From NCBI GenBank assembly GCA_030280995.1, contig JASXTE010000011.1, positions 21,757,817 to 21,821,816 of the forward strand: a DNA stretch of 64,000 bases. Direction: 5' to 3'. The DNA is from Hemileia vastatrix (lineage: Eukaryota; Basidiomycota; Pucciniomycetes; Pucciniales; Zaghouaniaceae). Below are positions 3,443 through 54,719 of this stretch, piece after piece. How positions within the stretch are numbered: position 1 is the first letter of the stretch; each line of letters starts with the position of its first letter. The translations under genes were made by a program, and so were the position numbers. The notes beneath the pieces are model-generated. The model ran no database searches. It had not been told where the DNA came from and saw only the letters and a program-made list of their open reading frames with translations.

Positions 3443-3477
3443 CATTTCTTTTTTATTGTTTTTTTAGAGTGAGGGAG

Positions 3478-5434: not shown

Positions 5435-5451
5435 AGAAGGAGGAATTACAA

Positions 5452-10901: not shown

Positions 10902-12188
10902 TGTCATTTGTCGTAAGTATCGGTATTGTCGTCGTCGTTTGGAAAGGCTCCCAGTTGTTGGCCAGTCGTCTAGAAGAAGGGAAGAAAAGGGAGAAGGAAA
11001 AAGGTTTTGGGAAAGAAAAGAAATAAGATATAAAAAATTATTTAATTTATTGGAGTGGAGCAACAACAAATTACTTGAGGGATGACACAAAAAAAATGAG
11101 GTAATATTAAATGTTAATATTATTTAAGGTAAGGGTTCTGTGCGGCAAACACTATGAGTACTATCAGACTTAAGGCAACCTTTGAATAGTTATATAGAAT
11201 CTAAATTAGAATTTTGATACTAATAAAAAATAATATAAACGTAATATAAAAATATGTTCAAGTTGTTGAGTGTATAGTAAGTGATGATGCTACAGGGGAT
11301 TATCCAAGGCCTTTTTATAGGCAATGGGTCCTCTAAAGCGCTACAACTGACTATATACAAAATAGTAATGAAGTAAAACAAGAAGATTAAAGAAGATATT
11401 TGTAACATAGTAATTGAGAGAAAAATATATGAAAATAATAAGAATCCCAATTAAGAAAATAAATTTCCCATCCCAAATTCCCAAATCAGTTAATATAAAA
11501 TAAAGAGTAACTAAACAACCCTGTGACATAAGAACTATGGGAAAAACAATTCAAAACAAGTATTACAATATGTTTTCAGAATTTCTAAGTGAAACAAATA
11601 ACATGTTTTGACGTAACAAGGTATGTAATCAATTTAATTCAGTGTAAATTAATATTATTTAATTTTTTTCATTATGTAATTAAATAACTAATTCAAATGA
11701 AACAATTAATTAATTCAAATTGAGAATTTATAATACTATTTTATAAAATAAGTATTATAATTTATTTAATTTTTTCCTGACACAATTAAGGGTCAAAAGA
11801 AGCGCCCAATTTGATTGTTTAATAATATATGAAGTTTTATTTAATATATTAATTTAAATCATTAATGTAATTACATTATAAGTCAATTTTACATATATAA
11901 TTATAATATATGTTAGTAATTAATTAATTATAAATTTATATTTAATAAATACATAAAAATGTGCCATTATTTGTAGAATATAAAATATATTATGCTTAAT
12001 TTAAATGTATAAATAATTTATATAACAACAAAATTAATATAACACTTATATTTAATAAGATACTTATATAATTTTATTAGGCAATAAAATATTAATTTAT
12101 ATACATCAAATGCAATTATTTATGCCCTCTTTCAGGTCCAATAAGTTAACATATCATTTACTGGGCTCCTGGTATAGCCTGGCTGACA
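10902..12188 (-). repeat. 5' LTR of copy B (about 1.29 kb)
   Basis: The outer end is clear: read on the minus strand it starts TGTCAGCCAGGCTA at 12188. The inner end at 10902 is inferred from a TGACA terminus and from the leader length, so it is less certain. The LTR shares terminal bases and the TATA core (GGCCTTTTTATAGGC at 11308-11322 on the plus strand) with the copy A family but is otherwise divergent. Confidence 0.55.
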
Positions 12189-12220
12189 AAAGTAGATAAA
12201 AAAGTCAATATCCAAAAAAA

Positions 12221-13173
12221 TTACCAGAAGATATCAAATATCTAACTGATTTTGGTGATGATCAAGTTGTTGCAGTTATCAGTAATACTTATAAGGCTCA
12301 ATTCATTTTGAAAGCTCATTCATTTGATGGTGTAAAAGATGAAACTTTTAATCAACTATCGGATCTTATCATAACTCTTTATCAAATGGCTTTAGTTTGA
12401 TTACCTATAAGGAATACAAAGTTGTTGGGTGGTATCATGATTGGATTTGGTTGGAGACCAGGTTTTGTTAAAGGATATTCTCTTGGTATGTCTAATAATT
12501 TTTTTTCCATTCTTAATATCATTTCACTTATTTCATTTATATAGGCATATATTCGTTGGTCAAGAATATCACTAAAGCTCAAAAAGATGAAGATTTTCAC
12601 TTATGGGACACTCTACCTTCCTTTAACTCTTTTCTTGCTTTTTGACTCAAAAATCTCTGTAATAAAGCATTTGAAAAAAATCATGAACTTGCAACCAAAG
12701 TTGGAATACCAAATTGGTGTGACTTCGAATGGGAAGATATTAGTCACAAATATCTTTTATTTTCTAATGTTATTATCACTCATTCTGGATTTCACAATAG
12801 GATTCATATCAATAGGAATGATGCCAATTTTCTTACTTTTGGAATATTCTCATATATCAATCCGATAACTAGCCACCCAATACCATCTCCAGCTAAAATC
12901 AAAGGACATGGTTTATAAATTTCAGACCACCGGTGTATCATTGATTTTGGTTTGGGAAATGGTATCATCAAAACTATTTGGAATTCTTCTAAGGATAATC
13001 ATCAAACAACCAAAGCTCCTCCTGGTTTGGAATCCTGTCAAGATTTCACACATTTTGGTTGCTCATTTCAAATCAGTCATAAGTTGATTCAAAGAATCAA
13101 TAAGGTAAAGAAAGAAGGTAAAGTTATTCAATTTAAAAAAACTTTATCTAGATCCATAAAGTATGGGGATTAG
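12221..13173 (+). pseudogene. Tet-like 2OG-Fe(II) dioxygenase, decayed copy 1
   Basis: Same exon structure as the copy at 33968-35213. Exon 1 runs to about 12486, the intron has a GTATGT donor and a TATAG acceptor at about 12545, and exon 2 carries the catalytic core. Four in-frame problems are visible: TGA at 12398-12400 where copy 2 has CGA; a TGA in the SFLA(F/L)-stop segment shared with copy 2; TAA just after the KGHGL segment; and loss of the iron ligand, since the HxD motif reads HIN (Asp codon now AAT at 12811-12813). The start is off the homologous region, cut by copy B. The enzyme is certainly inactive. Confidence 0.8.
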
Positions 13174-13247
13174 AGTTGTCATCAAAAATTTTATATTTTT
13201 TCATAAATTTTTAATAAATATTTTTATATATCAATTTGCTCAAGTAA

Positions 13248-14423
13248 TGTCAGCCTAGATATCCCTAGGACTGAGTATTTCTTATTCTTAAAATAAGATA
13301 AACTTAAGTACATTAAGCTTATATCTTAAAAATAAGGTTAAAACAATTATATATATTATGATTATACATATATATATAATTATTAGACTATTATATAGCT
13401 TATAGTAGTTTAAATAGCTTATCCATAACCTAAAAATACTTATTAAGGTGTTAATGGAGTCAAAATATACTTATCTTAATTGATATTAAGTAATTATTGA
13501 CATACATAAGCTTAAATGTATACATAAAGCTCATATTCAGTGAAATATGCAGTATATTATGTATATTTAGGTCTATAAGTGGGTTTTAGCCTCTTAATAG
13601 CCTATAACCTTTGCTTTTCTGCTTATTTTAGGTCATATGGACGAAATCAGTGGATTCACAACACCTACAGAAGTATAGACATCTATATCAGGTGCATACA
13701 CTCAGTTTGGACAACTTAATCTGCTTCCTTAGATGGATATTCACGGATTTATGGGTTGGGAGGTCATTGCTGGGTTAATGTGAATGCTTGGGGATGTTAT
13801 TGGGGTCTTGGACACTTAATTTGTTTCCTTTATATGCTTTGGGTTTCATTAAATCTCGTTTGGATTGCTTATTTTACCTGTTTCTTTATGGTATCCGCTT
13901 TCATCTTGATTTTCTATTTATGGTATGGGTCTGTGTTATCTTTAATTGTGATGGAGGGTCCTTACTGGAGGTCTGGGTGTTGAATCTGCTTTAAGTGGAC
14001 GCCATGGGGAGGTGATGGGCCCTCACAGTGCTGTAATTGCCGGGGATAGCAGTGACATCATCTGGATTGAAGGTCTGTGCACTCCAGGAGATTTGGGTAT
14101 AAGTAAGGAGGGATTTTGACGGTAATTTATCATAATTCACTTACTAAAATTCAAACAAACATTATAACACAATTATTATTATTCAAAGATATATTATAAA
14201 GCCATTATAAATTGATATTATCTTTATATAAGCTATAACTATATTTTATTCATCTATTTTCCACCACTAGCATGCATTTAAATCCAAGTATTGTGAGCTT
14301 GATTTGAGTATAACTATTTTATTAGTCTTCCCCTGAGGTTTAATCACTAAATAATTTATCAATAAGTAGTAGGACCATAAATAAATACTATTTTATCATA
14401 CTTAAACACTAGATACACTGACA
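13248..14423 (+). mobile_element. Solo LTR of the TGTCAGCCTAG Ty3 family (1176 bp)
   Basis: Starts TGTCAG and ends CTGACA (perfect inverted ends), flanked by the 5-bp target duplication AGTAA at 13243-13247 and 14424-14428. It is homologous to the LTRs at 29554, 47983 and 59076. It splits Harbinger copy 1, whose sequence resumes immediately after the duplication and matches 35285 onward in copy 2. It arose by LTR-LTR recombination of a full element. Confidence 0.92.
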
Positions 14424-14462
14424 AGTAATGTGATGAGCCAAAGACCTTTGGTTGTATAACAG

Positions 14463-14590
14463 GTAATCATGATAACATTTATTTGTTTCATGGGGTTCCT
14501 CTTGCCTATACCTGTGGAAAGTCTCAAACTTTTGTTTCTAGACTTGGTCTGCATTTTGGCTTGAGGAATTATCATTACTTTAACCTAGGG
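14463..14590 (+). other. Unrecognised ORF-like segment shared by both Harbinger copies (copy 1)
   Basis: A stretch encoding FHGVPLAYTCGKSQTFVS and LGLHFGL is conserved with 35326-35455 in copy 2. An acceptor-like TATAACAG precedes it. The two copies differ at several amino-acid positions, so coding selection is not established. Confidence 0.25.
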
Positions 14591-14627
14591 AATTTAATAA
14601 ATTATGTAATAATATTAAATTTAGATG

Positions 14628-15060
14628 ACTTCCACCCCTTACTTCAATAAAATGCAGGGGGGGGTATTGCCAAATTTTCAAATCTGACATGTGAAATTGA
14701 TGACTTAGAAAAATTTAGATAATACCCACCCCTTGCTTCAATAAAATGCAGGGGAGAGTATTGCCAATTTTTTAAAACAGATATAGAATTTTTTTGACTT
14801 GTAAATATTTTGGTGAAAATTTTTTGGTGATACCCATCCCTTACTTCAATAAAATCTATGGGGGTTTTCACCAAAATTTCTTATAAGACTTGTGAAACTC
14901 TTGGCATGTAAGAATTTTTGGGATACCGGTAAAATGCAGGGGGTAGTAAAGCTAAAGTTTCATATAAGACTTTCAAGATTCATGACATGAAAGAATTTTT
15001 GTGATACCCACCCCTTACTTCAAAAAAATCCAGGGGTGGGGGATCGTCAAATTTTCAAAG
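14628..15060. repeat. Tandem ~90-bp repeats inside Harbinger copy 1
   Basis: About five imperfect units, each with ACCCCTTACTTCAATAAAA followed by a G-rich TGCAGGGG segment, so each unit can form a small C-rich/G-rich hairpin. The same array is at 35513-35915 in copy 2, between the dioxygenase and the Myb-like gene. Confidence 0.7.
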
Positions 15061-15198
15061 GAGACATGAAAATTTTATTTAAAAAAATAATATAAAAATT
15101 CAAGTAATGATAGATAGAGTAATGAAATAAAGGAAATTATTGGAAATTTTATGTACAAACAAATATGAACAGTTGAAGTGTGAGAGAGATAAAACAAA

Positions 15199-16602
15199 CT
15201 AGTCATCCAACAATTTCTTTAAACGTTCAATTTCCTCAACAGATTTATTAGCTTTAACACATTCTATCAAGAAATCTTTCTTTTTGGAATTTTCTTCATG
15301 ATAAAACTTATATTTCATCTGCTCTAATAGGTTTTGATGTTTGAGTGTTTTCTCCTCTTTTTTGATTTTTCAATACTTAGAGTTAACTCAAACTTCTTCT
15401 CCTCCAAATCTTGGGCCCAACCATCCTTCCGTAAAGAGAGCTCATACTTCCTCTCCTCCAAATCTTGGGCCTGATCATCCTTCCATAAAGAGAGCTTGTA
15501 CTTCCTCTCTTCCAAATCTTGTAGCCTATCATCCCTCCTTAAAGAGAGCTCATATTTCTTCTTTTCAAAGCTTAGAGTCTCTTTAGCAATTTATACTTGT
15601 TCTAGAGTGATAATAAAAATTAATATAAAGTGGAAGAAAAGTAGAGTAAAGTAATAAGAGGTATGGTATCACTTACCAGCATCACGTTTCTCTAAAAAAT
15701 TTTCCATAGATGAAAAAGGGGTTTGTGATGAAGTATCACTTTTTTTGTCTTCTTTGTGAGTGGAAATTTAGACTACTTGAAGCCCTACGCTTCTTGTTCA
15801 AGGTCATATTTTCCTCCTCATCATTGTCACTACCTTCAGACTCAGTTGATTGAGGATCCTGGGTTTGTTTATCAGCCTTTTAAGAAATAAGAAAAAGATA
15901 AGTAAACAAAAAATAGAAAAGATAAGATAAAAGAAAAAAGAAACAGACCTGAGTTAGATTTGGTTGGGTTAAATCACCTATAGGATCTACAGAAAAGCTA
16001 TCTAGATATGTCTCATTCAAATGAGGGGAGGCTTTAGTGGAGGAAGAGTATGGGAAAAGATTTGCTTCGACATCATGTTTGGAGATAGGATCTTCACCAT
16101 CCAACATGTTTACAGGATTAAAATTGGCTTGCTCTCCAAAAATTGCATCCATCTCTTTAAAGTAAGGACATAAAGTTTCAAGTTTATTGTCTATGGATTT
16201 TATGCCCTTAGTTATATCATTGTCGGTAACCCCAAAACCAATGGAAGATGAAAGTGCCTTTGCCTTCTTGTATTTTGCTCGGTAATGCTTGAATCGTTCA
16301 GACATCTGTTTAGGCAAAATATCAATCCTTCCCTTGGTCTTATTCCGTAATTCATTTGCCATTAGAAGATAGCCATTAACTTTTGATGCGGGGGGCCGTC
16401 CTACTTTAGTGGAATACTCAGTACCAAAACAAGAATCATAGTTAGATTTGGTTTTCAGCCAGTTGATAAGAATGAGATGGTCATCTTTTTTTAATTGAAC
16501 AGTCTTTGATTTCTTGGCTGAGCGGGGGAAAGAGGAAGTAGTGGGAATTGAAGAACAACTGGGTGATGGCTGCCTTTGAGAAGATCTAGGATGACAAGGC
16601 AT
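15199..16602 (-). pseudogene. Harbinger Myb/SANT-like DNA-binding protein, copy 1
   Basis: Three exons on the minus strand: 16602-15949, 15876-15677 and 15601-15199, joined by short GT-AG introns. Exon 1 has a Ser/Pro-rich N-terminus and a Myb-like trihelix region (DDHLILINWLKTKSNYDSCF, RFKHYRAKYKKAKA) ending with an LCPYFKEMDAIFG block. Exon 2 is acidic then basic (KKRRASSSLNFHSQRR). Exon 3 is a coiled coil of tandem 18-residue repeats. PIF/Harbinger elements normally need such a Myb-like protein to bring the transposase to the ends. Single-base indels in exon 2 (A-run near 15740) and near 15350 break the frame. Confidence 0.78.
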
Positions 16603-16973
16603 GTTATTCTAAATGAAGATGAAAAGGAGCAGAAACAAGCAGATGAGATAGCGAGATGAAAAGGAGCAGAATCAAATAGATGAAATGGGGAGAAATTCTG
16701 AGCGGATAGAATGAACAGGATGGGATGAGAATGGAAGTGTGCAGCAAGGTAGAAGGCATATCCAGGGAGTAGTCCAAGATGTGGTTATGGCAGAAAGTAG
16801 GTCAAGATGTGGTTATGACAGAAGGTTGTCCAAGATGTGGTTATGAAAAATTGAGTAAAAAAATGTTGGATAAGAGGTGAAAATTGACACGTAAAGTGTC
16901 TAATAACCCAATTATTAGCAAAAATAATTGCAGAAGATAATTGGGGTATAAGGATTTTTATCCACAATTAATT

Positions 16974-17004
16974 TAATTGCTGATCCCTGAACATTGATAC
17001 CCCC
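16974..17004 (-). repeat. Right terminal inverted repeat of Harbinger copy 1
   Basis: Read inward on the minus strand it begins GGGGGTATCAATGTTCAG, matching both ends of copy 2 with few mismatches. The flank is TATTA. Confidence 0.85.
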
Positions 17005-29553: not shown

Positions 29554-30536
29554 TGTCAGCCTAGGTATCCCCAGGACTGAGTATTTCTTATGCTTAAAAT
29601 AAGATTACCTTAATTACATTAAGCTTATAAGTAAAAATTATGGTTATAATACTTATATATATGGTTATTATGCTTATATATATATTTATTACACTATTAA
29701 ATGACTTATATAAGTTTAAATAGCTTATACATAGCCCTATAATACTTATTAAGGTGCTAATGGAGTAATAATATACTTATCTTAAGTGATATTAAGTAAT
29801 TATAGACATACATAAGCTTATATGTATGCATAAACCTCATATTCAATGAAATATATAGTTATATTATGTATATATAGGTCTATAAGTGGGGTTTCACCTC
29901 TATATAGCCTATAATATTTTTTTCTGCTTATTTTAGGTCAGATGGACATATTCAATGGACTCAAAACTCCTACACAAGCATATATACCTTTTTCAGGCAC
30001 ATATGTCCAGTTTGGACAACTTTATCTGCTTCCTTTGATGGATTTTCACAGATTTATGGGTTGGGATATGATTACTGGGTTAATATGGATGCTTAGGGAT
30101 GTTATTGAGGGTTTGGAAAGTTGATTTGGTTCCTTTATATGCTTTGGGTTTGGTTATATACTCTTTGGATGAGTTATTTTACCTGTTTCCATATGGTATC
30201 CACTTTTATCTGTTTTCTCTATTTATGGTATGGGTTTATGATATCATTGATTGTGATGGAGGGTCCTTACTGGAGGTCTGTTTGTTGAAACTGCTTAAAT
30301 TGGAAGCCATGGGGAGGTGATGGGCCCTCACAGTGCTGTAATTGCGGGGGAGAACAGTGACATCATCTAGATTGAAGGTCTGTGCACTCCAGTTGATTTT
30401 GGTATAAGTAAAGGAGGATTTAATGGGTTATTGGACATCACTTACTTAATAAAATTCAAATCAACATTATAAAACAATTATTATCATATATAAATATATT
30501 ATAAAGCATTTATAAATTGATATTATCTTTATATTA

Positions 30537-30567
30537 GGGGGTATCAATGTTCAGGGATCCGCAATTA
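30537..30567 (+). repeat. Left terminal inverted repeat of Harbinger copy 2
   Basis: GGGGGTATCAATGTTCAGGG and onward to GCAATTA, matching the inverse of 37785-37815 with about four mismatches. Confidence 0.9.
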
Positions 30568-30619
30568 GGGATCAGGAATTTTTTTTCCCGGAATCAGACA
30601 TTATTAATTGCGGAAGATT

Positions 30620-30651
30620 CTTATCCACTAGCCCCAGGGCTAGTGGATAAG
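30620..30651. repeat. Perfect 15-bp hairpin near the left Harbinger end
   Basis: CTTATCCACTAGCCC, a 2-base loop, then its exact inverse. It sits about 80 bp inside the element end and may be a transposase or Myb-protein site, but there is no direct evidence. Confidence 0.6.
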
Positions 30652-30915
30652 AAATCCACGATAATGCATTATCCCGCCTCTTATACCCCAATTTCCATTC
30701 CTAATTCCTGATCCCAAACTCATCTCATCCATGATGGATTTTTAAGAAAGTCACATGACTTATAATTGCTGATGCCATCCTTAAGTATTTCCTCACTCTA
30801 TGCTACTTAATTTTGGTGGCAAACACTTAAGTTTTTTTTCTATCTACACACCCCAACTGCACATTTGGCGGTGAATTCCCACTTCCCTCATCACATAACC
30901 CTTCCACCGGCAACA

Positions 30916-32175
30916 ATGAAACACCTCTCTACTAGGAAGCTACTTCACTCAACAATGAATGCTATTACTTTTCTTTTAGTTCTTTACTATAAATCTGACT
31001 CTGATTTGGAAGATGCTTTAGCTTATATGTGTTTTCTTTCCAAAAAGCGTTACATTATCACCAGGGGGCCAAATCTTTATCATGATCCCCGATATGATCT
31101 GGCCTCCATTCTCAACATTCCTCATTTAAACTTCACACAACTTTTTAGAACTTCTCCCGATTCTTTCTTCAAACTTTATCAACTCATCTCCGATCATCCT
31201 ATCTTCCATAACAATTCTTATAACAAACAGCGTAATCCTGCCATCCAACTTGCTGTTGCTCTATGTTGCTTTGGCTCAAATGGAAATGGTGCTGCCGTAA
31301 GACGTTTGGATAATCTCTTTAACATAGGATATGGTACCGTGATATTATACACCAAGCGCTGTATGATTGCTATCCTTTCCCTCAAGTCTTGAACTCTTGC
31401 TTGGCCAACTCCAGAACAGCGACTTGAATCCTCTCAAGTAATGCAAGCTGAAGGTTTCCCTGGCTGTATAGGTTTTGTTGATGGCACAACCATCCCTTTG
31501 AGTCAAAAGCCTGCTCATTATGGCAACCATTATTTTGATTGCAAAAAAAGGTTTCTTCAAAATCTTCTCCAAGTTCTCATCTTTCACAATCTAACTTTTT
31601 ATCTTCTTTCTAGATACTCTATTGCCGTTCAACTTGTATGCGATGTCAATAAAAAATTTATTGCTTTTCACAGTGGCTGCCCTGGATCATGTCATGACTC
31701 TTCCGTCTTCCAAAGAATGAGGATTTCTCAATCCCCTGAATCATACTTTGATGAATCTCAGTACCTCCTTGCAGACTCAGCATATGCAAGTGGAAAGTAC
31801 ATTATACCTGCTTTCCGTGGTGCAACTTCAGAAAATGACCCCAAAACTAAATTTAATTATCACCTTGCACAATCAAGAGTACAAATTGAACATGCTATAG
31901 GTATTTTAAAGGGACGATTTTCTAGTCTTCGGGAGCTCAGAATCCAATTTCAAAAAAAATTGGAGATCAAAACTGCAAATCATTGGATCTTGACTTACGT
32001 AATACTCCACAATATTCTAGCTGATTTAAAGGATGAGTGGAATGATCTTTATGAAGAAGAGGATCCTGAACCACCACTGGCACTCCCCTCCCTTGATTCA
32101 CAAATCATTCAATCAACCGGCATACGCCCCATTATAATGCCAATTACTCTCCAACATTTCTCTTCACCCTTTTAA
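30916..32175 (+). pseudogene. PIF/Harbinger DDE transposase (one in-frame TGA)
   Basis: The ATG at 30916 opens a frame ending at TAA 32173-32175 with one intron (31551-31613, GTTTCT to CTAG). Removing the intron gives KKRYSIAVQLVCD, the expected sequence around the RNase H-like core. The catalytic triad is complete: Asp in GFVDGTT (31480-31482), Asp in LADSAY (31774-31776) and Glu in IEHAIG (31888-31890). The only defect is TGA at 31390-31392, most simply a CGA Arg codon mutated at CpG. It cuts and pastes the element with the Myb-like protein. The absence of other damage suggests recent activity. Confidence 0.88.
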
Positions 32176-32520
32176 TTTTTAATTTTTATGTTTTCATACT
32201 TTCCAAATGTCCTCTTTGTGTACTTTAATCACTTGGTTTTGTATTTTGGTTTGTTGCATATTCATTTTTTTTTTTGAATTTACGGTGAATATCTTTTTTT
32301 TGGATGGCTCATTGGTTTTCTTTCACTTCCTCAACATGAAATCGCATATTTTCTTATATCACATATTTTGTCAGTGTTTTTTTTCATTCATCACTCATAT
32401 CCTTTTCATCCTCTCCTCAAACATCCCTCAAATATTTTGGTTGCATTTATTTTCTCAACTCAACTCACCAGGTAGGTCATTTTTTTTCTTTTTTCATGGT
32501 TTTTTATTTGCTAATCATGA

Positions 32521-32522
32521 TT

Positions 32523-32553
<31 letters not shown>

Positions 32554-32600
32554 TGCTTTTTTTTTGCTTTTTTTTTTTGGTTTTTTTGGTTTTTTTGTAA
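32521..32600 (+). repeat. T-rich tandem repeat (TTTTTTTTGC)
   Basis: Four to five units of eight or nine T followed by GC. Apparent open frames here are Phe-rich low-complexity artefacts. Confidence 0.75.
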
Positions 32601-32689
32601 GTGCTTCTATTATTTTTGTTCTAGGGTAAACTAATTTTTGTTTTGCTTTTTTCTCTTTTTTATCTTTTTATTTTTTTGTTTTTTTTTCT

Positions 32690-33370
32690 CTCCTTCACCT
32701 CTCTTTATCATCCTCAAGGCCCCCCTTTTTCCCTCTCTTTACCTGTCTCTGACCCCCTTTTTACCCCCTTTTTAGCTGCCTCAAATCCACCTTTCCCCCC
32801 TCTTTAGGTCCCTCATCACCCCCTTCCCCTCTTTTTAGGTACTTCAATACACCCCCCTTCCCCTCTCTTTTGGCGCCTCAAACCCCCCCCTTCCCCCCCT
32901 ACCCAATAGTTATATCCTCCTCTACCCCCCCCCCCCCCCCTGTTTATTAACAAACGATTGTTATAGATTGTTCGTTAACAAGGAGGTGGGGGGGGGTGGG
33001 TGTAGAGAAAGGGGAAAGGGTTTGGGAGGGGGTAAGGTGATTGGAAGGGGGGGGGGTTTGAGGTGCCTAAGGAGAGGGGAATGGGGGGGGGTTTGAGGCG
33101 CCTAAGGAGAGGGGAATGGGGGGGGTTTAAGGCGCCTAAGGTGAGGGGAATGGGGGGGGGTTTGAGGCAGCTAAAGAGGGGGAAATGGGGGGGGTTTGAG
33201 GCAGCTAAAGAGGGGGGAATGGGGGGGGTTTGAGGCAGCTAAAGAGGGGGGAAGGAGGGTGATGAGGGACCTAAAGAGCGGGGAAAGGGGGGTATTTCAG
33301 GGGGATTTTGAGGCAGGCAAGGAGAGCATTTGAGGGGGAAAAGGGGACATTTATGGGAGATAAAGATGGG
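32690..33370. repeat. C-rich / G-rich inverted minisatellite with a central hairpin
   Basis: The right arm (32985-33370) holds about seven units of 33-38 bp of the form GGGTTTGAGGCGCCTAAGG followed by AGAGGGGAATGGGGGG. The left arm (32700-32940) holds the same motif inverted (GGCGCCTCAAACCCCCC). The centre near 32945-32980 has TTAACAAACGATTG facing its inverse. The G-runs make strong quadruplex candidates. It lies between the transposase and dioxygenase genes. Confidence 0.8.
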
Positions 33371-33967
33371 TTACCAACTTTCAAATAAAGATACTAACAA
33401 ATTTTTGTTTGTAATTTTGATTATTTTTTTTATTCTTTTTGCAGTAATATAGAAAAAAAAAATTCTTTCTGATAAGGACTGTCCCTCTTATTTACAAAAC
33501 AAAAAAGGTTTATAATTTTATTTTTATTTTTTCTATAATTAATTTTTGTGATTTTGATTTTATTTAAATAATTTTTTTATTTTTTATTTTGATTTTACTG
33601 ATTATTTTTTTTTTCATGATCTTGTGAGAAGGTTTTTAATAACCAATCTTCAGGTTCACTTTTAAATTTTTTTTAAATTTTTTTTTTTGTGATTTAATTC
33701 TTACTGAAATTTTCTTTTTTGAATGAATTTAATTATTAATTTTTTTTAATAGGATTTTGCTTTGATTGTGTTTTTTAAAATAAAACCTCAGGTTTTTTTT
33801 TTATAAATTTTTTTTTTGGAAAATTTTTTACTGATTTTTTGGGTTTTTTTTTCAATTTTATTTTTAAAATAAAAAAAAGCTTTTTTTATTATTAGGTAGG
33901 AATTTTTTTTAAAAAAAATTTGAGTTAAAATTTTATTGACAATTAATTTTTTTTTCAGATCAAAAAA
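33371..33967. other. T/A-rich spacer upstream of the dioxygenase gene
   Basis: Homopolymer-rich T and A sequence with no gene seen. It presumably contains the promoter of the dioxygenase gene, but no clear TATA position stands out. Confidence 0.4.
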
Positions 33968-35213
33968 ATGTCTTCTTCTTCTGATTCACCCCTTACTTCT
34001 CTCTTATCTTCATCTTTATCTTCTTTATCATCTTCATCTTTATCATCTCTATCATCTTCTTTGAAATCAACTCTATCATCTTCTTTGAAATCAACTTCCA
34101 TACAATCATCTTCTAAATCATCAAAAAAAATTAAAGATAATCAGTCTCATCAGAAGAAAAGATATTTAAAAAAAAAGTCTCTCTGCGAAAGTTATTTTCG
34201 TCATATCCCAAACATTTTTTTTTATAAAACTAAAGTAGATAAAAAAATAATTATCCGAAAAAATTACCAGAAGATATCAAATATCTAACAGAATTTGGAG
34301 ATGATCGAGTTGTTGCAGTTATCAGCAATGCTTTTAAGCCTCAATTCATTTTGGAAGTTCATTCATTCGATGGTGTAAAAGATGAAGCTTTTAATCAACT
34401 ATCCGATCTTATCATAACTCTTTATCAAATGGCTTTGGTTCGATTACCTATAAGGAATAAGAATTTGTTGGGTGGTATCATGATTGGTTTTGGTTGGAGA
34501 CCTGGTTTTGTCAAAGGATATTCTCTTGGTATGTCTAATAATTTTTGTTCCATTCTTAATATCATTTCACTTATTTCAATTATATAGGTATATATTCATT
34601 GCTCAATAATATCACTAAAGCACAAAAAGATGAAGATTTTCGCTTATGGGACACTCTACCCTACTTTAATTCTTTTCTTGCTCTTTGACTCAAAAAGCTC
34701 TGTAATAAGGCATTTGAAAAAAATCATGAACTTGCAACCAAAGTTGGAATACCGAATTGGTGTGACTCCGAATGGGAAGATATCAGCCACGAATATCTTT
34801 TATTTTCTAATGTTATTATCACTCATTCTGGATTCCACAATAGGATTCATATCGATAGGAATGATGCCAATTTTCTTACTTTTGGAATATTCTCATATAT
34901 CAATCCGATAACTGGCCACCCAATACCATCTCCAGCTAAAATCAAAGGACATGGTTTATATTTTCCAGACCACCGGTGCATCATTGATTTTGGTTTGGGA
35001 AATGGTATCATCAAAACTATTTGGAATTCTTCTAAGGATAATCATCAAACGACCAAAGCTCCTCCTGGTTTGAAATCCTGTCAAGATTTCACTCATTTTG
35101 GTTGCTCATTTCAAATCAGTAATAAGTTGATACAAAGAATCAATAAGGTAAAGAAAGAAGGTAAAGTTATTTGATTTATAAAAACTTTATCTAGATCCAA
35201 AAAGTATGGGGAT
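33968..35213 (+). pseudogene. Tet-like 2OG-Fe(II) dioxygenase carried by Harbinger copy 2
   Basis: ATG at 33968. A Ser-rich N-terminus and a basic KKRYLKKKS segment (possible nuclear signal) precede the conserved region, entered in another frame after an A-run shift near 34259. From 34261: LPEDIKYLTEFGDD, then LLGGIMIGFGWRPGF, an intron (34529-34587, GTATGT to TATAG), then the core. Iron ligands fit HxD in HIDRND (His 34848-34850, Asp 34854-34856) and a distal His (35043-35045), followed by FGCSFQIS. This pattern matches the Tet-like 2OG-Fe(II) oxygenase family expanded in basidiomycetes. TET/JBP enzymes oxidise methylated bases in DNA with 2-oxoglutarate, O2 and Fe(II). Breaks: the A-run shift, TGA near 34687 (shared with copy 1) and TGA near 35174 close to the C-terminus. 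Function in DNA is inferred. Confidence 0.78.
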
Positions 35214-35325
35214 TAGAGTTGTCATTGAAAATTTTATATTTTTTCATAAATTTTTAATAAATATTTTTTATATATCAATTTTCTCAAATAATGTGATGAG
35301 CCATCGACCTTGTGTTGTATAACAG

Positions 35326-35513
35326 GTAATCATGATAACATTCATTTGTTTCATGGGGTTCCTCTTCCCTATACCTGTAGAAAGTTCCAAACTTTTGTTT
35401 CTCGACTTGGTCTGCATTTTGGCTTGAGGGATTATCATTACTTTAAACTAGGGAAATTGATATATATTAGATATTTATTTAATAATTTATGTAATTATAT
35501 TAAATTTAGATGA
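35326..35513 (+). other. Unrecognised ORF-like segment shared by both Harbinger copies (copy 2)
   Basis: Reads NIHLFHGVPLPYTCRKFQ and LGLHFGLRDYHYFKL after a possible acceptor (TATAACAG at 35318-35325). It could be a further exon of the dioxygenase gene, a separate small protein or non-coding. No family recognised. Confidence 0.3.
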
Positions 35514-35915
35514 CTTCCACCCCTTACTTCAATAAAATGCAGGGGGGGGGGTGTTGCCAAATTTTCAAATCTGACATGTGAAATTGATGACTTAGAAAAA
35601 TTTTGGTGATACCCACCCCTTGCTTCAATAAAATGCAGGGGAGAGTATTTCCAATTTTTTTAAACAGATATAGAATTTATTTTACTTTTAAATATTTTTG
35701 TGATACCCGTTCCTTACTTCAATAAAATCCATGGGGGGTTGTGCCAAAATTTCTTATAAGACTTGTGAAATTCTTGACATGTAAGAATTTTTGGGATACC
35801 GGTAAAATGCAGGGGGTAGTAAAGCCAAATTTTCATATAAAACTTTCAAGATTCATGACATGAAAGAATTTTTGTGATACCCACCCCTTACTTCAAAAAA
35901 ATCCAGAGGTGGGGG
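35513..35915. repeat. Tandem ~90-bp repeats inside Harbinger copy 2
   Basis: Five imperfect units beginning near 35513, 35603, 35697, 35790 and 35874, each pairing CACCCCTTACTTCAATAAAA with a following CAGGGG(TGG) stretch. They lie between the convergent dioxygenase and Myb-like genes. Confidence 0.75.
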
Positions 35916-36066
35916 ATTGTCAAATTTTTAAAGGAGACTTGAAAATTTTATTTAAAAAAAGAATATTTAACATTAAAATACGATATTTCAAGAAATACAG
36001 AAAATAATTGTAAAATTTATGTACAAATAAATATGAACACATGAAGTGTGAAAGAAATAAAAGAAA

Positions 36067-37464
36067 CTAGTCAACAAAAAAATTCATTAAACGTTCTATT
36101 TCTTCAACAGATTTGTTTGCTTTAATGCATTCGATCAAGAAATCTTTCTTTTTAGAACTTTCTTGGAGATCATGCTTATACTTCATCTGTTCCATTAAGT
36201 TTTGATGCTTGAGTGTTTTTTCCTTATTTTTGGATTTTTCAATACTAAGAGTTAGCTCAAACTTCTTCTCCTCCAAATCTTGGGCCCTACCATCCTTCTG
36301 TAAAGAGAGCTCAAACTTCTTCTCCTCCAAATCTTGGATCCGATCATCCTTCCGTAAGGAGAGCTCATACTTCCTCTCTTCCAAATCTTGTACTCTGTCA
36401 TCCCTCCTTAAAGAGAGATCTTATTTCTTCTTTTCAAAGCTCAGAGTCTCTTTAGCAATTTCCACTTGTTCTAGAGTGAGAATAAAAATTAACATAAAGT
36501 AGAAGAAAAGCAGAGTAAAGTAATAAGAGGTATGATATCACTTACCAGCATCACGTTTCTCTAAAAACTGTTCCATTGAAGAAAAAGGTGTTTGTGATGA
36601 AGTATCACTTTTTCGTCTTCTTTGGGAGAGGAAATTTAGACTAGTTGAAGCCCTTCTCTTTTTGTTCAACGTAGCATTTTCCTCCTCATCATTGTCACTA
36701 GCTTCAGACTCAGTTGATTGAGGATCCTGGGTTTGTTCATCAGCCTTTTAAGAAATAAGAAAAAGATAAGTAAATAAAAAAATAGAATTGATAAGATAAA
36801 AGAAACAGACCTGAGTTAGATTGGGTTGGGTTAAATCGCCAATAGGATCAATAGCAAAGCTATCAAGATTTGTAGAATTTAGAAGAGGGGAGGCTTGAGT
36901 GGAGGAAGAGGATGGGAAAAGATTTGCTTCAACATCATGTTCGGAGATAGGATCTTCTCCATCCAACATGTTTACAGGATTAACATCGGCTCGCTCTCCA
37001 AAAATTGCATCCATCTCTTTAAAGTAAGGACATAAAGAATCAAGTTTATTGTCTATGGATTTTATACCCTTAGTTATATCAATGTCAGTAACCCCAAAAC
37101 CAGTGGAAGATGAAAGAGCCTTTGCCTTCTTGTATTTTGCTCGAAAATGCTTGAAGCGTTCAGACATCTGTTTAGGCAAAAGATCAATCCTTCCCTTGGT
37201 CTTATTGCGTAATTCATTTGCCATTAGAAGATAGCCATTAACTTTTGATGTGGGGGGCCGTCCTACTTTAGTGGCATACTCAGTACCAAAACAAGAATCA
37301 TAGTTAGATTTGGTTTTCAGCCAGTTGATAAGAATGAGATGTTCATCTTTTTTTAATTGAACAGTCTTTGATTTCTTGGCTGAGCGGGGGAAAGAGGAAG
37401 TAGTGGGAATTGAAGAACAACTGGGTGATGGCTGCCTTTGAGAAGATCTAGGATGACGAGGCAT
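36067..37464 (-). pseudogene. Harbinger Myb/SANT-like DNA-binding protein, copy 2
   Basis: Exons 37464-36811, 36744-36546 and 36470-36067 join in frame. Exon 1 holds a Ser/Pro-rich start, the Myb-like helices (DEHLILINWLKTKSNYDSCF, RFKHFRAKYKKAKA) and the LCPYFKEMDAIFG block. Exon 2 is an acidic stretch then a basic KKRRASTSLNF and RRRK segment (likely nuclear signal). Exon 3 is a coiled coil of 18-residue repeats (KFELSLQKDGRAQDLEEK) ending EEIERLMNFFVD. A TAA near 36421 (Tyr codon in copy 1) cuts off the coiled coil; otherwise it is intact. It should bind subterminal sites and recruit the transposase. Confidence 0.82.
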
Positions 37465-37784
37465 GTTATTATAAATGAAGATGAAAAGGAGCAGAAACAA
37501 GCAGATGAGATAGCAAGATGAAAAGAAGAAGAATCAAATAGATGAAATGGGGAGAAATTCTGAGCGGATGGAATGAACAGGATGGGATGAGAATGGAAGT
37601 GCGCAGCAAGGTAGAAGGCTGGGATATCCAGAAAGTTGTCCAAGATGTGGTTATGGAAAATTGAGTAAAAAAAATGTCGGATAAGAGGTGAACATTGACA
37701 CGTAAAGTGTCTAATAACCCAATTATTAGCAAAAATAATTGCGGAAGATAATTGGGGTATGCAGATTATTTTCCGCAATTAATT

Positions 37785-37815
37785 TAATTGCGGATCGGTC
37801 AACATTGATACCCCC
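37785..37815 (-). repeat. Right terminal inverted repeat of Harbinger copy 2
   Basis: The inverse of the left end, finishing GATACCCCC at 37815, followed by TATTA. Confidence 0.9.
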
Positions 37816-38012
37816 TATTAGCTATAACTATATTTTATAAACCTATTTTCCACCACTAGCACACACCAATTTAAATATTGTGAGTTAACACTGAACATAA
37901 CTATTGTATTAGTCTTCCCCTGAGGTTTAATCACTAAATAATTTATTTAAAAGTAGTTGGAACATTAATATTTACAATTAAATCATACTTAGATACTAGC
38001 ATACACTGACGA

Positions 38013-38965: not shown

Positions 38966-41037
38966 TCAAAGGAGGTGTAGTTGTTCTAGAGTGACTTTGT
39001 GAGATGAAGTGTTGAGAGGTTTTTTCATTACATCTGCCAGTTGTTTGCCTGAAGGTACCCATGTTAGTGTTGCTTTCTTTTTGTAGAGTTGTTCGTTTAC
39101 ATAGTAAAAATCTCGTTCCATGTGTCTTGTTCTTTTGTTTGATCCTTTGTTGCTTGCTGTTTTAGTTGATGCTTCATTGTCGCAGAAAAGATTCAGGGTT
39201 CCTTTGAAGTTTATAATATCTTCGAGCAGATTTTTAATCCACATACCAGACTTGGTCGCTGTTGATAGCGCCATTAGTTCTGCATGGCAGGTGGCTGTAG
39301 CTACGCAGGAGAGACGTCTGGATGACCAGCTGATGGGGCAGTCATTAAGTAGAGTAATGTGGCCCCCGGTTGATCTAGAATGTTCCCCGCCCCAATCTGA
39401 GTTGCTGAAACACTTTAGATCGATGGTTGGTGTGTTTTTGTTCGATGGGAATAAGTTTAGGATTAGTTCTTTTGTGTTGCGTAGGTATGCTAGGAGATGT
39501 TTCAGGGCAGCCCAGTGATTGTTTGTGGGACACTTGGAAAAAAGGGCTAAGAAGTTCACACTGAAAGCAATGTCTGGTCTGGTGCCACTGGCCACATAGC
39601 TGAGTGATCCAATGGCGGACAAATAGTTTGTCGCGTTCACAGGTGTTGATCCTTCAGGTGCAACTTTCAGGTTTGAGGATGGTGGCAAAGGGGTCGATTT
39701 TGTTTCGTATATGTGGCTGAATTTGTCTAGTATTTTGTTTATGAGGGTGAGTTGGCTAAGGATGAAACCTTTATCAATGCGCTTGAATGATAAACCTACA
39801 ATGGAGTCAAGGGAAGGATTCCACTTGATGGTAAGTTCATTTGACAGGCAATTTTGTAGGTTCTGTAGTTCTTCAAGGCTGTTTGCTGTGACGAGGCCAT
39901 CATCTACATGGACCCAAATTAGTGTATTTCTTCCATCTTGCCTTAGGTAATAGACACTGGCATCGTACTGGGACACTTGGTATCCCAGTTTCGTTAACTT
40001 TGATGAGAGGTGTTCCCACCAGCAGCGTGCGGCTTGACATGTTCCGTATAAGGCTTTTTTAAGTAAGAGTGCTTTTCCATCATTTATTTCAAAACCTGGA
40101 GGGTCCTTTATATAAATTTCTTCGTTGATTGGGCTGTGTAGGTAAGCAGCTGTGACATCAAAAGAATGGACCGGCCAGTTGTAGTGTGCAGCAAGTGTTA
40201 GGATTATCCTCTGTGACGTGAAGGTTGCAGTGGGTGCAAAAGTTTCATGATAGTCTATTCCGTGAATTTGTTTGAAGCCTTTTGCTACATACCTGGCCTT
40301 CAGTTTCACCAGATTTCCATCCGCATCACATTTTTCTGCAAAAACCCATCTGGCATCTGTGATTTTGGCCAAGAGAGGTGGTGTTGTTCTTTCCCAAACT
40401 CCCATCTTCTGCATGTTTTCCATTTCCTCAGTGCATGCTTCATGCCACTGTTTGCTGTTCGGTAGTTTCATGGCCTCTTTGAAAGATTTCGGCGCTGTTG
40501 AGGAAAGAAAACACAAGGCTCTCTCAATGGTGTTGAGAAGTTCCTCTTTCTTGTCTATAAGGCGTTCAGCTTCAAAATTGTCTAGACCGTTGATGTTTAT
40601 TGGGTCTATTATGTTGGCTTCTACTGGGTTTAATAAGTTGTTTATTAACATTTTGTCTGAGGTAGGTGTGGGTGTTGGGTCAAAAGCTGTCCATGCTGAA
40701 GCTATTAGTTTTTTTTGTTCAAAATCCCAGAAAAGCCAGCCTTTAGAGGCCTGCAAGAAACCTACCAATATACATTTTTTGGCTCTTTGATCAAGTTTGA
40801 GTCGTGTTTCTTTCGGAATATGGACGTATGCTGTAGAACCAAAAGGCCTTATAATGTTGGCTATTGGTGCATGACCAAACATCGCTTCAAAAGGTGTTTG
40901 TTCAGAGAATATAGAATTTGTGAGTTGATTTTGCACGTAAGCCGCCCACTTGTAAGAAAAACCCCAAAAGAATTTGGGTAGGCCACTGTCAAGGAGTACT
41001 GTTCTACCCATGTCCAACACTGATCTATTCTGTCCTT
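38966..41037 (-). pseudogene. Copia integrase C-terminus, RT and RNase H
   Basis: A 684-codon uninterrupted frame preceded by a short in-frame stretch (KRNGRIEGQNRSVLDMGR). It has the integrase C-terminal part (LPKFFWGFSYKWAAY), RT with FDVTAAYLHSP and the catalytic VHVDD near 39910, and RNase H with LFCDNEASTK near 39180. These domains copy and process the element cDNA. A frameshift near 41035 separates it from the rest of the integrase. Confidence 0.9.
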
Positions 41038-41515
41038 CTATTCTGCCGTTTCGCTTGTGATTATAGGGTAGGGAGAGTTCATTGATAATGCCTTTTGAGA
41101 TGAAGAAAGTTTTGTTTGTGTTTCAAGTCTGTTGATAGTATTGATGATGGTGGTGGTAGCTTCAGATTTTGTTTTTAAGATGTGGCATTCTGTGTATGTT
41201 GTGGCACAATCTTTAATAGTTAGTGCCCAAAGTCCATTGTCAAACGTGGTTTCTTCTAGGGGACCGATGAGGTCAGCTGTGAGGAGGTCTAGCTTGGTAA
41301 GTTCTCTACTTCGGGACGGTAAGTCAGAGAGTTTGGTAATTTTTGATAATTTACATATTTCACAGTTGATCTCACCTGTAGGTATGAATTTCAGCAGACC
41401 CTTTGCCATGTCAAAGGAGATAAGTTTTTGGATTTGTCTGAGGCTGGCATGGCCAAAAAGTTGGTGATAATAGTATAACAGATCATTGTTAGATTGGTGA
41501 GTAGCAAGGGTATGG
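41038..41515 (-). pseudogene. Copia integrase N-terminal part
   Basis: Contains the HHCC zinc finger (LFGHASLRQIQKL near 41450, CEICKLSK near 41355) and the beginning of the catalytic core (LLTADLIGPLEE near 41270). It shifts frame near 41100 before the part at 41037-38966. Confidence 0.8.
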
Positions 41516-41518
41516 ATT

Positions 41519-42010
41519 AGTTAGGGGTTTTCAAAAGGAATGGTTGATTGGTCATAATATGATGTGTATAGGGTGAGAGATTCATTTGGAGTAGTGGTAT
41601 TTACAGGGTATGATGGTTTAAATGAGCATAAATCTGTTTTTGGTAGTGTTTTTGGGAATGGAAATAGCCATCTACAATTGGTAAAGGTGGCTTGTAGTAC
41701 ACGCATTCCTGCAAAATGAACAAAAATGTGGTTGTCAGAATTCCATTCTATAGATGCTCCACCCCTGATAAGTGCCGCTGGAGATATAAGTGTGCGTGAG
41801 GCATTCTTACAGAAATATACATTATTAATGTTGATAACTGTCCCACCCAGTCCAGCAAAACGAAGGGTTCCCTTCCCTGTAATGAAATTGCAAACATTGT
41901 TAGTGGCCACTTGTAAAGGTAAAGGTTCAGGTAGGGTGGAGAAGTTCACTAACTCGTTAACTGCACTTGTGAGGTGATGAATCGCCCCTGTGTCAAAAAC
42001 AGGGGGGGGG
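41519..42010 (-). pseudogene. Copia protease region
   Basis: The active-site segment VFDTGAIHHLT lies at about 41998-41970, followed by VNELVNFSTLPEPLPLQV. A run of ten or eleven C (minus strand) at 42001-42010 shifts the frame against Gag, and a stop near 41519 separates it from the integrase. Confidence 0.78.
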
Positions 42011-43348: not shown

Positions 43349-43716
43349 TCTTTTTTTTTTTTTTTTTTTTGGTAAAGGACTAGACTACTAAATAAAGGAT
43401 GTTCCAGACGTCTCCGTCAAACCGTGGTAGGTCTTAGTAAGAAGACAAACCCGGGTATCCTGATAAGAAAAAAAAGAAAACAAGGAAAAAGGAAAGGAAA
43501 AAGAAGGAGAAAGAGAAAAAGAAGGAAGAGAAAAGTTAGCCTAAAGAAACTGGCTGAGGTTTGTTGTGTGAGAAAAAAAAATAGTGGTGTAGAGAGAGAG
43601 ATAAGCGGAAGCCAAAGGAAACTGGCTGAGTTCTGATTTTTGAGAAGAAAGGAAAAGAAACTTGTTGCAGAGCGGAGAAAACTTGTTGCAGAGCTGAGCG
43701 TTAAGGGACCATAACC

Positions 43717-49339: not shown

Positions 49340-49344
49340 GAAGG

Positions 49345-53149: not shown

Positions 53150-54555
53150 TCACCTAAGTGGCCTACCCATATTTGGAATACCACAACTTTCAATTTCTTC
53201 AACAGATTTATTAGCTTTAACAAATTCTATCAAGAATTCTTTCTTTTTGGAATTTTTTTCATGATCAAGCTTATATTTCATCTGCTCCATGAGGTTTTGA
53301 TGCTCAAGTTTTTTCTCCTCTTTCTTTGATTTTTCAATACTTAGAGATAACTCAAATTTTTTCTCCTCCAAGTCTTGTGCCCTATCATCCTTCTGTAAAG
53401 AGAGTCTATACTTCCTCTCCTCCAAGACTTGTGTCCTATCATCCTTCTGTAAAGAGAGTTCAAACTTCTTCTCTTCCAAATCATGTACCCTGTCATCCCT
53501 CCTTAAAGAGGGCTCGTATTTTTGCTTTTCAAAATTTAGAGTCTCTTTAGCAACTTCCACTTGTTCTAGAGTGATAAGAAATATTAACAAAAAGTAGAAG
53601 AAAAACATAGTAAAGTATTAAGAGGTTTGGTATAACTTACCAGCATCATGTTTCACCAAAAATTCTTTGATAGAAGAAAAAGGGGTTTGAGATGAAGTAT
53701 CACTTTTTCTTCTTCTTTGAGAGTGGAAATTTAGACTACTTGAAGCCCTTCGCTTTTTTTTCAAGGTCACATTTTCCTCCTCATCATTATCCCTGGCTTC
53801 TGACTCAGTTGATTGTGGCTCCTGCATTTGTTTATAAGCCTATTTATAAATAAGAAAAAGTAAATAAAAAAATAATTGGTAAGATAAAAGAAAAAAAAAC
53901 ATACTTGAGTTAGATCAGGTTGGTTTATATTGCCATAAGGATCTATTGAAAAGATATCTTGATTTGGGGAAGTGAACTGAGGGGAGGCTTGAGTAGAAGA
54001 GGAAGGAAAAAGATTTCTTTTGATATCATGTTCAGAGTTAGGATCTTCACCATCCAACATGTTTGCAGGATTAACATCAGCTCGCTCTCCAAAAATCAAA
54101 TCCATCTCTTTAAAGTAAGGACATAAAGAATCAAGTTTATCATCTATGGATTTGATGCCCTTACTGATATCAAGGTCAGTAATACCAAAACCAGTAGAAG
54201 ATGAAAGAGTCTTTGCCTTCTTGTACTTGGCTTGATAATGCTTGAAGCGTTCAGACATCTGTTTCGGTAAAAGATCTATCCTTCCCTTAGTCTTATTCCG
54301 TAATTCATTGGCCATTAGAAGATAACCATTAATTTTTGATGCGGGGGGCCGTCCTACTTTAGTCGCATTCTCAGTACCAAAACAAGAATCATAGTTAGAT
54401 TTAGTTTTTAGCCAGTTGATAAGAATGAGATGATCATCTTTTTTTAATTGAATGATTTAGGATTTCTCAGCAGAGTGGGGGAAAGAGGGAGTAGTGGGAT
54501 TTGAAGAACAACTAAGTGATGGCTGCCTTTGAGAAGATCTATGAAGACAAGGCAT
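53150..54555 (-). pseudogene. Third copy of the Harbinger Myb-like gene, isolated
   Basis: Homologous to 36067-37464 with the introns kept, so it is a DNA copy, not a processed one. ATG at 54555. An in-frame TAA near 54458 lies just before LKKDDHLILINWLK. The rest of exon 1 is well preserved (RFKHYQAKYKKAKT, LCPYFKEMDLIFG). Exon 3 has one more 18-residue coiled-coil repeat than copy 1 or 2 and stops matching near 53184, before the ERLMNFF end. Neither Harbinger ends nor the transposase are present nearby. Confidence 0.75.
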
Positions 54556-54719
54556 GTTAAGATAATTAAAGATGAAAAGGAGTAGAAACAAGCAGATGAG
54601 ATGGGGAGGGTTTTTGAATTGATAGAATGAATAGACAGGATGGGAGTGTGCAGCAAGGTAGGGAGGCTGGAACATCCAGAAAGCTGTCCAAGATGTGGTT
54701 ATGAAAAATTCAGGATAAA

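What the first reader, a model, noticed from the sequence alone, without database searches (positions are those of the whole stretch)
30537..37815. PIF/Harbinger transposon carrying a Tet-like DNA-base dioxygenase gene
A complete 7.3-kb Harbinger with clean ends and TATTA flanks holds three genes: DDE transposase, Myb-like protein, and a Tet-like 2OG-Fe(II) dioxygenase (HxD in HIDRND, distal His, FGCSFQIS). Seen directly: the motifs and their position inside the ends, and the same gene in a second copy at 12221. Known: fungal TET/JBP genes have been reported as cargo of KDZ-type transposons. I do not know of a described Harbinger association. Inference: the element may oxidise methylated cytosine at its own or host DNA to escape silencing.
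Basis: partly seen in the sequence, partly recalled or inferred. Interest (0 to 1): 0.92.

Follow-up and report, generated by a model that had tools for sequence, protein, structure and literature searches.

The report
Rust-type Harbinger transposon carrying Tet-like gene
A jumping gene found in very many copies in a rust-like fungal genome carries, besides its own mobility genes, a gene for an enzyme of the kind that oxidises methylated DNA; this pairing was already published in 2025, and the window adds a well-resolved, recently active new family.

Summary
Window 30536-37816 is a Harbinger-type DNA transposon (DDE_Tnp_4, E 5.6e-25) with a Tet-like 2OG-Fe(II) dioxygenase gene (PF20515, E 7e-25) between its ends. 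In the host's 747.6-Mb genome the terminus occurs exactly 4305 times. Of 20 fetched copies, 6 carry TET up to its N-terminal region, 6 only the catalytic half, 8 none. Three diverged relatives keep the order transposase, TET, third gene.

Corrections: the flanks are not a 5-bp TATTA duplication but 3-bp AWT, gapless at 9 of 12 insertions with empty relatives. The 'Myb' similarity stays below Pfam's cut-off. This copy's transposase and TET genes each carry a stop codon.

Not new in kind: Kojima 2025 (PMC12730594) describes TET-bearing Harbinger families ('PHISTA') in rusts and proposes escape from methylation silencing. New here: a family with AWT where PHISTA is defined by TA; strong C-to-T decay at TCG; purifying selection on the catalytic exon; one TET gene swapped between close relatives (synonymous difference 0.78 against 0.20-0.28 in neighbouring genes). 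Dioxygenase activity and function remain unshown.

The parts
30533..30535 (.). left target-site duplication ATT (AWT class)
   Evidence: flanks of 21 of 21 copies fit AWT; paralogous empty sites gapless under this reading
30536..30567 (+). left terminal inverted repeat, A-GGGGGTATCAATGTT...
   Evidence: (I11); the leading A from the duplication analysis
30916..31548 (+). transposase, first exon; TGA at 31390-31392
   Evidence: translation and copy comparison
31615..32175 (+). transposase, second exon; the DDE_Tnp_4 match spans the end of exon 1, the putative intron and exon 2
   Evidence: PF13359 E 5.6e-25 over profile 1-158 of 158 on ORF 31393-32175; intron inferred from reading frame and splice-like borders
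33968..34270 (+). Ser-rich N-terminal part of the Tet-like protein (frame differs from the next part in this copy)
34264..34527 (+). Tet-like dioxygenase, middle exon
   Evidence: alignment with Austropuccinia homologues
34590..35174 (+). Tet-like dioxygenase, catalytic exon (HxD 34848-34856, distal His 35043-35045, FGCSFQIS); TGA at 34686-34688
   Evidence: PF20515 E 7e-25 on ORF 34689-35174; purifying selection
36811..37464 (-). third gene, first exon; weak Myb/SANT-like similarity
   Evidence: PF13837 18.7-19.5 bits, below cut-off 27
36067..36420 (-). third gene, coiled-coil-like repeat part
   Evidence: ORF; 54-bp internal repeats (D9); excess of synonymous changes
37785..37816 (-). right terminal inverted repeat ...CCCCC-T
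37817..37819 (.). right target-site duplication ATT
12186..17004 (+). copy B, 5'-truncated: TET (HxD reads HxN), third gene, right end; interrupted at 13251-14421 by a repeat that is itself an empty relative of copy A's insertion site
53185..54719 (+). copy C, partial: third gene and coiled-coil part only (genes on the - strand, as in A), 82.6% identical

Best explanation
This is one decayed copy of a large, recently amplified family of PIF/Harbinger-type transposons in a rust-like fungus, of the kind Kojima 2025 named PHISTA. The element moves by its DDE transposase and makes a 3-bp AWT duplication (duplication shown by flanks and empty sites; the transposase's role follows from its family). 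It carries a Tet-like dioxygenase between the transposase and a third gene (shown). The dioxygenase most likely oxidises 5-methylcytosine in the element's own DNA and that of its relatives, so that source copies escape the host's methylation-linked silencing and C-to-T mutation (inferred). It probably works in trans: copies without TET carry equally good ends (inferred). The TET gene behaves as an exchangeable module within the element (one exchange shown, L038 against A).
For: PF20515 and PF13359 well above cut-off inside the ends. 20 of 20 fetched copies with perfect 15-bp ends; TET up to the N-terminal region in 6, catalytic half only in 6, none in 8. Three diverged relatives keep transposase(+) TET(+) third(-). 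Catalytic exon: 27 synonymous of 65 events against 16.2 expected, reached in 0 of 1000 simulations with mutation classes preserved; pairwise dN/dS 0.25 for A-B. C-to-T rate 12.6% at TCG, 5.2% at other CG, 0.8% elsewhere. L038 against A: synonymous difference 0.20 (transposase), 0.28 (third), 0.78 (TET). Closest transposases are rust proteins: P. coronata 54%, P. striiformis 53%, with which the family groups at 100/99 support.
Against: No enzyme activity, expression or methylation data. TET-bearing copies do not carry significantly fewer CG C-to-T changes than TET-less ones (67 to 127 against 37 to 51, CG changes to transversions, P 0.23); under action in trans no difference is expected, so this is silent. 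8 of 20 copies lack TET, so it is not needed in cis. The transposase exons show no significant constraint in the same test (P 0.055 and 0.592), so the sample of young copies has little power and the TET result should be repeated on more copies. PDB sequence searches with the TET piece and with the profile found no dioxygenase, and the model of a homologue failed (pLDDT 38). Another substrate (thymine, 6-methyladenine) is not excluded.
Confidence: 0.68

Rival explanations
1. TET is a passenger: captured once, carried along, without effect on the element; its loss in many copies is neutral.
For: TET missing in 8 and truncated in 6 of 20 copies that still have perfect ends; stop codons or HxN in several copies.
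Against: The catalytic exon shows the strongest excess of synonymous changes of the seven gene segments tested; HxD, distal His and FGCSFQI persist in relatives at 57-62% identity; the order is kept in 3 of 3 diverged relatives extended.
Confidence: 0.15
2. The enzyme acts on DNA but not to demethylate in favour of the element: another base or product (hydroxymethyluracil, 6mA, a 5gmC-type adduct), for example to mark element ends for the transposase or third protein.
For: Kojima 2025 states that the function of transposon-encoded TET/JBP genes is not experimentally validated and leaves other products open for the PU type.
Against: The family decays at CG, above all TCG, as expected if it is methylated at cytosine.
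Confidence: 0.12
3. The gene is not a working part of a Harbinger: chance neighbourhood, host gene, or relic of another transposon nested inside.
For: TET lineages also occur in other transposon superfamilies (Kojima 2025); this copy's gene is broken.
Against: 12 of 20 fetched copies hold at least the catalytic half inside the ends; L038 and L039 show it inside matching or related ends; 9 of 12 testable insertions show precise insertion between these ends.
Confidence: 0.03

Closest known systems
TET-positive Harbinger families, lineage PHISTA (Kojima 2025, PMC12730594)
   Same: Rust hosts by relatedness; Harbinger DDE transposase; Tet/JBP-type dioxygenase; a third gene; TA next to each end. 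The closest named transposases found (P. coronata, P. striiformis, A. psidii) are from species in his list.
   Different: His families are defined by a TA duplication; here it is AWT, 3 bp, with the element ending in A...T. He finds no Myb/SANT domain in the third protein; here there is a weak, sub-threshold similarity. His sequences (supplement) could not be compared.
Nuwa and canonical PIF/Harbinger
   Same: Transposase plus a second, Myb/SANT-type protein; 3-bp duplication (as stated in PMC12730594).
   Different: TET is not part of their stated gene set; canonical target recalled as TWA (no call), here AWT; the third protein here is not confirmed as Myb/SANT.
KDZ (Kyakuja-Dileera-Zisupton) elements with TET/JBP
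   Same: TET/JBP gene as transposon cargo in basidiomycetes (PMC12730594; the earlier work it cites was not read).
   Different: Different transposase superfamily; 7-8 bp duplications (PMC12730594).
CcTET of Coprinopsis cinerea (AG type)
   Same: TET/JBP dioxygenase; PMC12730594 names it among the closest solved relatives of PU-type enzymes.
   Different: AG type, tested enzyme; the gene here belongs with PF20515 proteins of Austropuccinia (34-43% identity) and is untested.

Membership tests
PIF/Harbinger | DDE transposase of the DDE_Tnp_4 / IS5-like group | tested here: met
   PF13359 5.6e-25, full profile; some HARBI1-named relatives
PIF/Harbinger | terminal inverted repeats at the ends of a precise insertion | tested here: met
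   empty sites
PIF/Harbinger | 3-bp target-site duplication | tested here: met
   AWT: 21 of 21 flanks; gapless at 9 of 12 insertions. Target AWT, not TWA (TWA recalled)
PIF/Harbinger | second protein with Myb/SANT domain | tested here: inconclusive
   18.7-19.5 bits, cut-off 27; model pLDDT 54, no fold match
PHISTA (TET-positive) | TA dinucleotide duplication | tested here: not met
   TA reading fits flanks 21 of 21 but no empty relative is gapless under it; at the 9 decisive insertions the gap is 3 nt in every relative shown except one with 4 (12 of 18 shown for L024)
PHISTA (TET-positive) | transposase groups with rust PHISTA transposases | tested here: inconclusive
   groups with P. coronata and P. 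striiformis proteins, 100/99; which of those are Kojima's families is not known to me
PHISTA (TET-positive) | TET/JBP gene and a third gene inside the ends | tested here: met
TET/JBP dioxygenase (PU type) | significant match to the Tet-like 2OG-Fe(II) family with HxD...H | tested here: met
   PF20515 7e-25; motif conserved in homologues. HxD reads HxN in B, L009, L016
TET/JBP dioxygenase (PU type) | double-stranded beta-helix fold | tested here: inconclusive
   model of homologue P0002 failed, pLDDT 38
TET/JBP dioxygenase (PU type) | oxidation of 5-methylcytosine | not testable with these tools
   no assay

The most novel reading that the evidence does not exclude
The TET gene is an exchangeable anti-silencing cassette: Harbinger elements of one family swap, truncate and lose it while keeping transposase, third gene and ends; TET-bearing copies serve the whole family in trans against a host that methylates and mutates TCG sites, so that TET-less copies parasitise TET-bearing ones and cassette variants are replaced as in an arms race.
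Probability: 0.35. Interest if true: 0.65.

Novelty: new member of a known kind. Interest (0 to 1): 0.42.

Why it matters
It gives a further family, probably from a host outside the published survey (inference from identities of 54% or less), in which the idea of transposon-borne demethylation can be measured: very many copies with identical termini, TET-bearing and TET-less versions side by side, a methylation-type mutation signature, and selection on the catalytic exon. It also suggests that the TA duplication used to define PHISTA should be rechecked against empty sites.

Tried and rejected
TA duplication: rejected for this family. A putative further exon after TET (about 35325-35480): no sign of selection (4 synonymous against 3.9 expected), not counted as coding. 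Structure of the TET protein: modelled on homologue P0002 with 7 rows, pLDDT 38, unusable. Fold of the third protein: pLDDT 54, no Foldseek match with E <= 0.001. PDB by sequence: nothing for the TET piece, only unrelated chains at E 0.26-3.1 for the TET profile, unrelated acetyltransferases near E 0.05 for the third protein. NCBIfam: nothing for the TET piece; sub-threshold IS5 similarity for the transposase. Protective effect of TET in cis: not seen, P 0.23 (counts copied by hand). Host identity: not settled; named TET relatives are only 34-43% identical (Austropuccinia), so probably not that species. Genome-wide counts of the HxD codon states and of termini without the AWT flank were asked for but did not complete.
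Full report
What was claimed.

The observation. The ends match over 28 of 31 bp. Pfam finds DDE_Tnp_4 at 5.6e-25 on ORF 31393-32175 and PF20515 (Tet-like 2OG-Fe(II) oxygenase) at 7e-25 on ORF 34689-35174, both far above the curated cut-offs. By position the HxD lies at 34848-34856 and the distal His at 35043-35045. The third gene scores 18.7-19.5 bits against the Myb/SANT model PF13837, whose cut-off is 27; its predicted fold is poor (pLDDT 54) and matched nothing. Myb-like is therefore possible, not shown. The copy's genes are not intact: a TGA stands in the transposase and one in the catalytic TET exon, and the first two TET parts are in different frames. Of the 7 copies that have those parts (A and 6 fetched), only L022 and L026 have them in one frame, so the exon structure at that point is unsettled.

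Other copies in the window. Copy B (12186-17004) lacks the transposase but holds TET, the third gene and the right end; copy C (53185-54719) holds only the third gene. B is interrupted by a repeat of about 1.2 kb (13251-14421). The same repeat flanks copy A on both sides, and two further copies lie at about 48-49 and 59-60 kb: A inserted into one member of this repeat family, and the others show the site empty, two of them with the exact sequence and B's with one mismatch.

Genome copies. The window lies in an unnamed assembly of 747.6 Mb. A DNA search with the left 180 bp scored 40 of 982 candidates and found 40 full-length places at 99-100%, copy A included. Because only the best candidates are scored, this sample favours young copies. 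All 20 have a perfect 15-bp left and right end and run from 3.4 to 7.9 kb. L019 has two possible right ends; scripts carried it with the outer one, though only same-strand collinear matches were counted and its own element ends at the inner one. TET is present up to the N-terminal region in 6 (L010, L011, L022, L023, L026, L028), as the catalytic half only in 6 that share one replacement of 830 bp (L009, L015, L016, L018, L020, L021), and absent in 8. The exact pattern AWTA + 23 bases of the terminus occurs 2163 + 2142 times, the reversed control 0. An element gives one or two hits, so this means about 2150 to 4305 elements with an exact end, short non-autonomous ones included: among the 100 places listed of 4305 I see opposed ends 442-456 bp apart (4 pairs) and 7.0-7.3 kb apart (4 pairs), besides intermediate ones. 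How many of them carry TET is not known. PF20515 itself: 150 of 150 scored places over the cut-off, out of 10,849 first-look candidates, so Tet-like genes are very numerous here; nearly all of those 150 were not traced to an element.

Target duplication. Flanks read AWTA|GGGGG...CCCCC|TAWT with the same W on both sides in 21 of 21 readings (20 fetched copies, L019 counted with its inner right end, and A). Flanks alone allow TA (2 bp) or AWT (3 bp, with the element ending in A...T). Empty relatives of the insertion sites separate them: of 12 insertions with a relative in the sequence held, 9 align without a gap under AWT (L014 in 4 of its 5 relatives, the other 8 in all of theirs) and none of the 12 under TA, where the relatives shown of those 9 need 3 nt, one needs 4 (12 of 18 shown for L024). 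The other 3 insertions (L010, L013, L026) have small gaps either way. Some of these relatives are only 65-75% alike. A 1-bp duplication of W inside a required A_T, with TA as part of the element, is formally equivalent (21 of 21); 3 bp is the usual Harbinger value. TATTA fits 8 of 21.

Diverged relatives. From the eight PF20515 loci handed out, I extended three to 10 kb (L037-L039). All three have transposase(+), TET(+), third(-); in L037 the transposase is partial, cut by the end of the stretch, and repeated. L039 has its own ends (AGGGGGTCTCAAACTTGACC...) flanked by ATT on both sides, and about 52-62% identity to A in the three proteins. L038 aligns with A at both ends and over transposase, TET and third gene, with 83% (transposase exon 2) and 90% (third, core) protein identity but only 59% in the catalytic TET exon. 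Synonymous difference is 0.20, 0.28 and 0.78: the TET gene of L038 has another history than its neighbours. I read this as exchange of the cassette. L037 carries the same TET type as L038 (88%).

Mutation and selection. Outside the low-complexity zone, changes from the per-column majority over A, B, C and the 20 copies are C-to-T in 462 of 1219 cases. The rate per site and copy is 12.6% at TCG (130 of 1031), 5.2% at other CG (99 of 1894) and 0.8% elsewhere (233 of 30158). TCG hypermutation in Pucciniomycotina repeats is described in PMC12730594 (citing others). Under simulation that keeps these classes, the catalytic TET exon has 27 synonymous of 65 events against 16.2 expected (0 of 1000), the coiled-coil part 34 of 93 against 21.5 (P 0.002); the other five segments (two transposase exons, TET middle, putative exon after TET, third gene exon 1) are not significant (P 0.055-0.595) (copy C left out). 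Both significant segments survive a correction for seven tests. Each distinct change was counted once; recurrent and shared changes were not modelled further. dN/dS of the catalytic exon is 0.25 for A-B, 0.33-0.35 for L022 against three half-TET copies, 0.59 for L037-L038. Against this, the second transposase exon in those same L022 comparisons shows 11-14 amino-acid changes to 0-1 silent ones: in the half-TET copies the transposase is not under visible constraint while TET is. The catalytic Asp codon reads AAT in 3 of 14 copies and the silent ATT-GAT change is seen in 1 of 14; too few to judge.

Relatives elsewhere. TET: 5 hits at E <= 0.001, four from Austropuccinia psidii and one unnamed, 34-43% identity. 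Transposase: 122 hits (120 listed), led by P. coronata 54%, P. striiformis 53%, A. psidii 49%; in a tree of 41 rows, 38 of them hits that I chose, A, L038 and L039 fall with five P. coronata/P. striiformis proteins at 100/99; that group joins six A. psidii and one Phakopsora protein at 98/99. Third protein: one unnamed hit, 39% over 42%. I conclude that the host is a rust or close kin, probably none of the annotated species; this is inference.

Prior work. Kojima 2025 (PMC12730594; abstract, results 3.1 and 3.4 and part 1 of 2 of the discussion read, passages elsewhere) reports TET genes in DNA transposons of rusts, among them 15 Harbinger families with TA duplications in six species including A. 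psidii, with a third protein without Myb/SANT domain, calls the lineage PHISTA, and proposes that the enzyme counters methylation and C-to-T mutation. Searches of the held library for TET/JBP with Harbinger (24 papers, 20 listed) and for PHISTA, Harbinger, TET (47 papers, 20 listed) showed me no second paper on the subject in the lists. PMC12210899 (passages only) reports PIF-Harbinger in rusts and DNMT1/DNMT5 in all 12 genomes studied.

Mechanism. Shown: mobile unit, ends, duplication, gene content, amplification, CG-type decay, constraint on the catalytic exon in this sample. Inferred: 5mC as substrate, relief of silencing, action in trans. Copies without TET carry slightly more CG changes relative to transversions, but not significantly (P 0.23).

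Verdict. A real and well-supported element; ordinary in kind since December 2025. The AWT duplication, the cassette exchange and the selection result are additions. Interest 0.42.

Noticed in passing
29555-30536 + 37820-38012; 13250-14425; 47984-49340; 59078-60248: A repeat of about 1.2 kb (starting TCAGCCTAG, ending near ACTGACA), four copies in the window at about 80-91% identity, possibly a solo LTR; it is the insertion target of copy A and is itself inserted in copy B next to a repeated AAGTAATG.
   Followed up: partly
32690-33330: C-rich and G-rich minisatellite arms of about 35-bp units facing each other inside the element, between transposase and TET; several copies stop matching copy A near here (about el 2353-2360), as if it were an exchange border.
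   Followed up: no
L015 element coordinates 2059-2888, also in L009, L016, L018, L020, L021: An 830-bp stretch without nucleotide similarity to copy A replaces the TET N-terminal half in six copies with the same borders.
   Followed up: partly
54720-55047 and 55266-55596: Two inverted arms of about 330 bp, 95% identical, beside the broken end of copy C: probably a separate foldback or MITE-like element.
   Followed up: no
4571-9921 (-): Gypsy-type retroelement with largely open frames: integrase, RT and RNase H domains.
   Followed up: no
38966-43384 (-): Copia-type retroelement with a 718-aa frame (RVT_2).
   Followed up: no
56272-58122 (+): 616-aa frame with DUF3835 (24.5 bits, cut-off 21), a likely host gene among transposons.
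   Followed up: no
G000, 10,849 first-look candidates for PF20515: Tet-like genes appear very many times in this genome; some match profile positions 7-211 in one open frame, unlike the split gene here, and were not traced to an element.
   Followed up: partly
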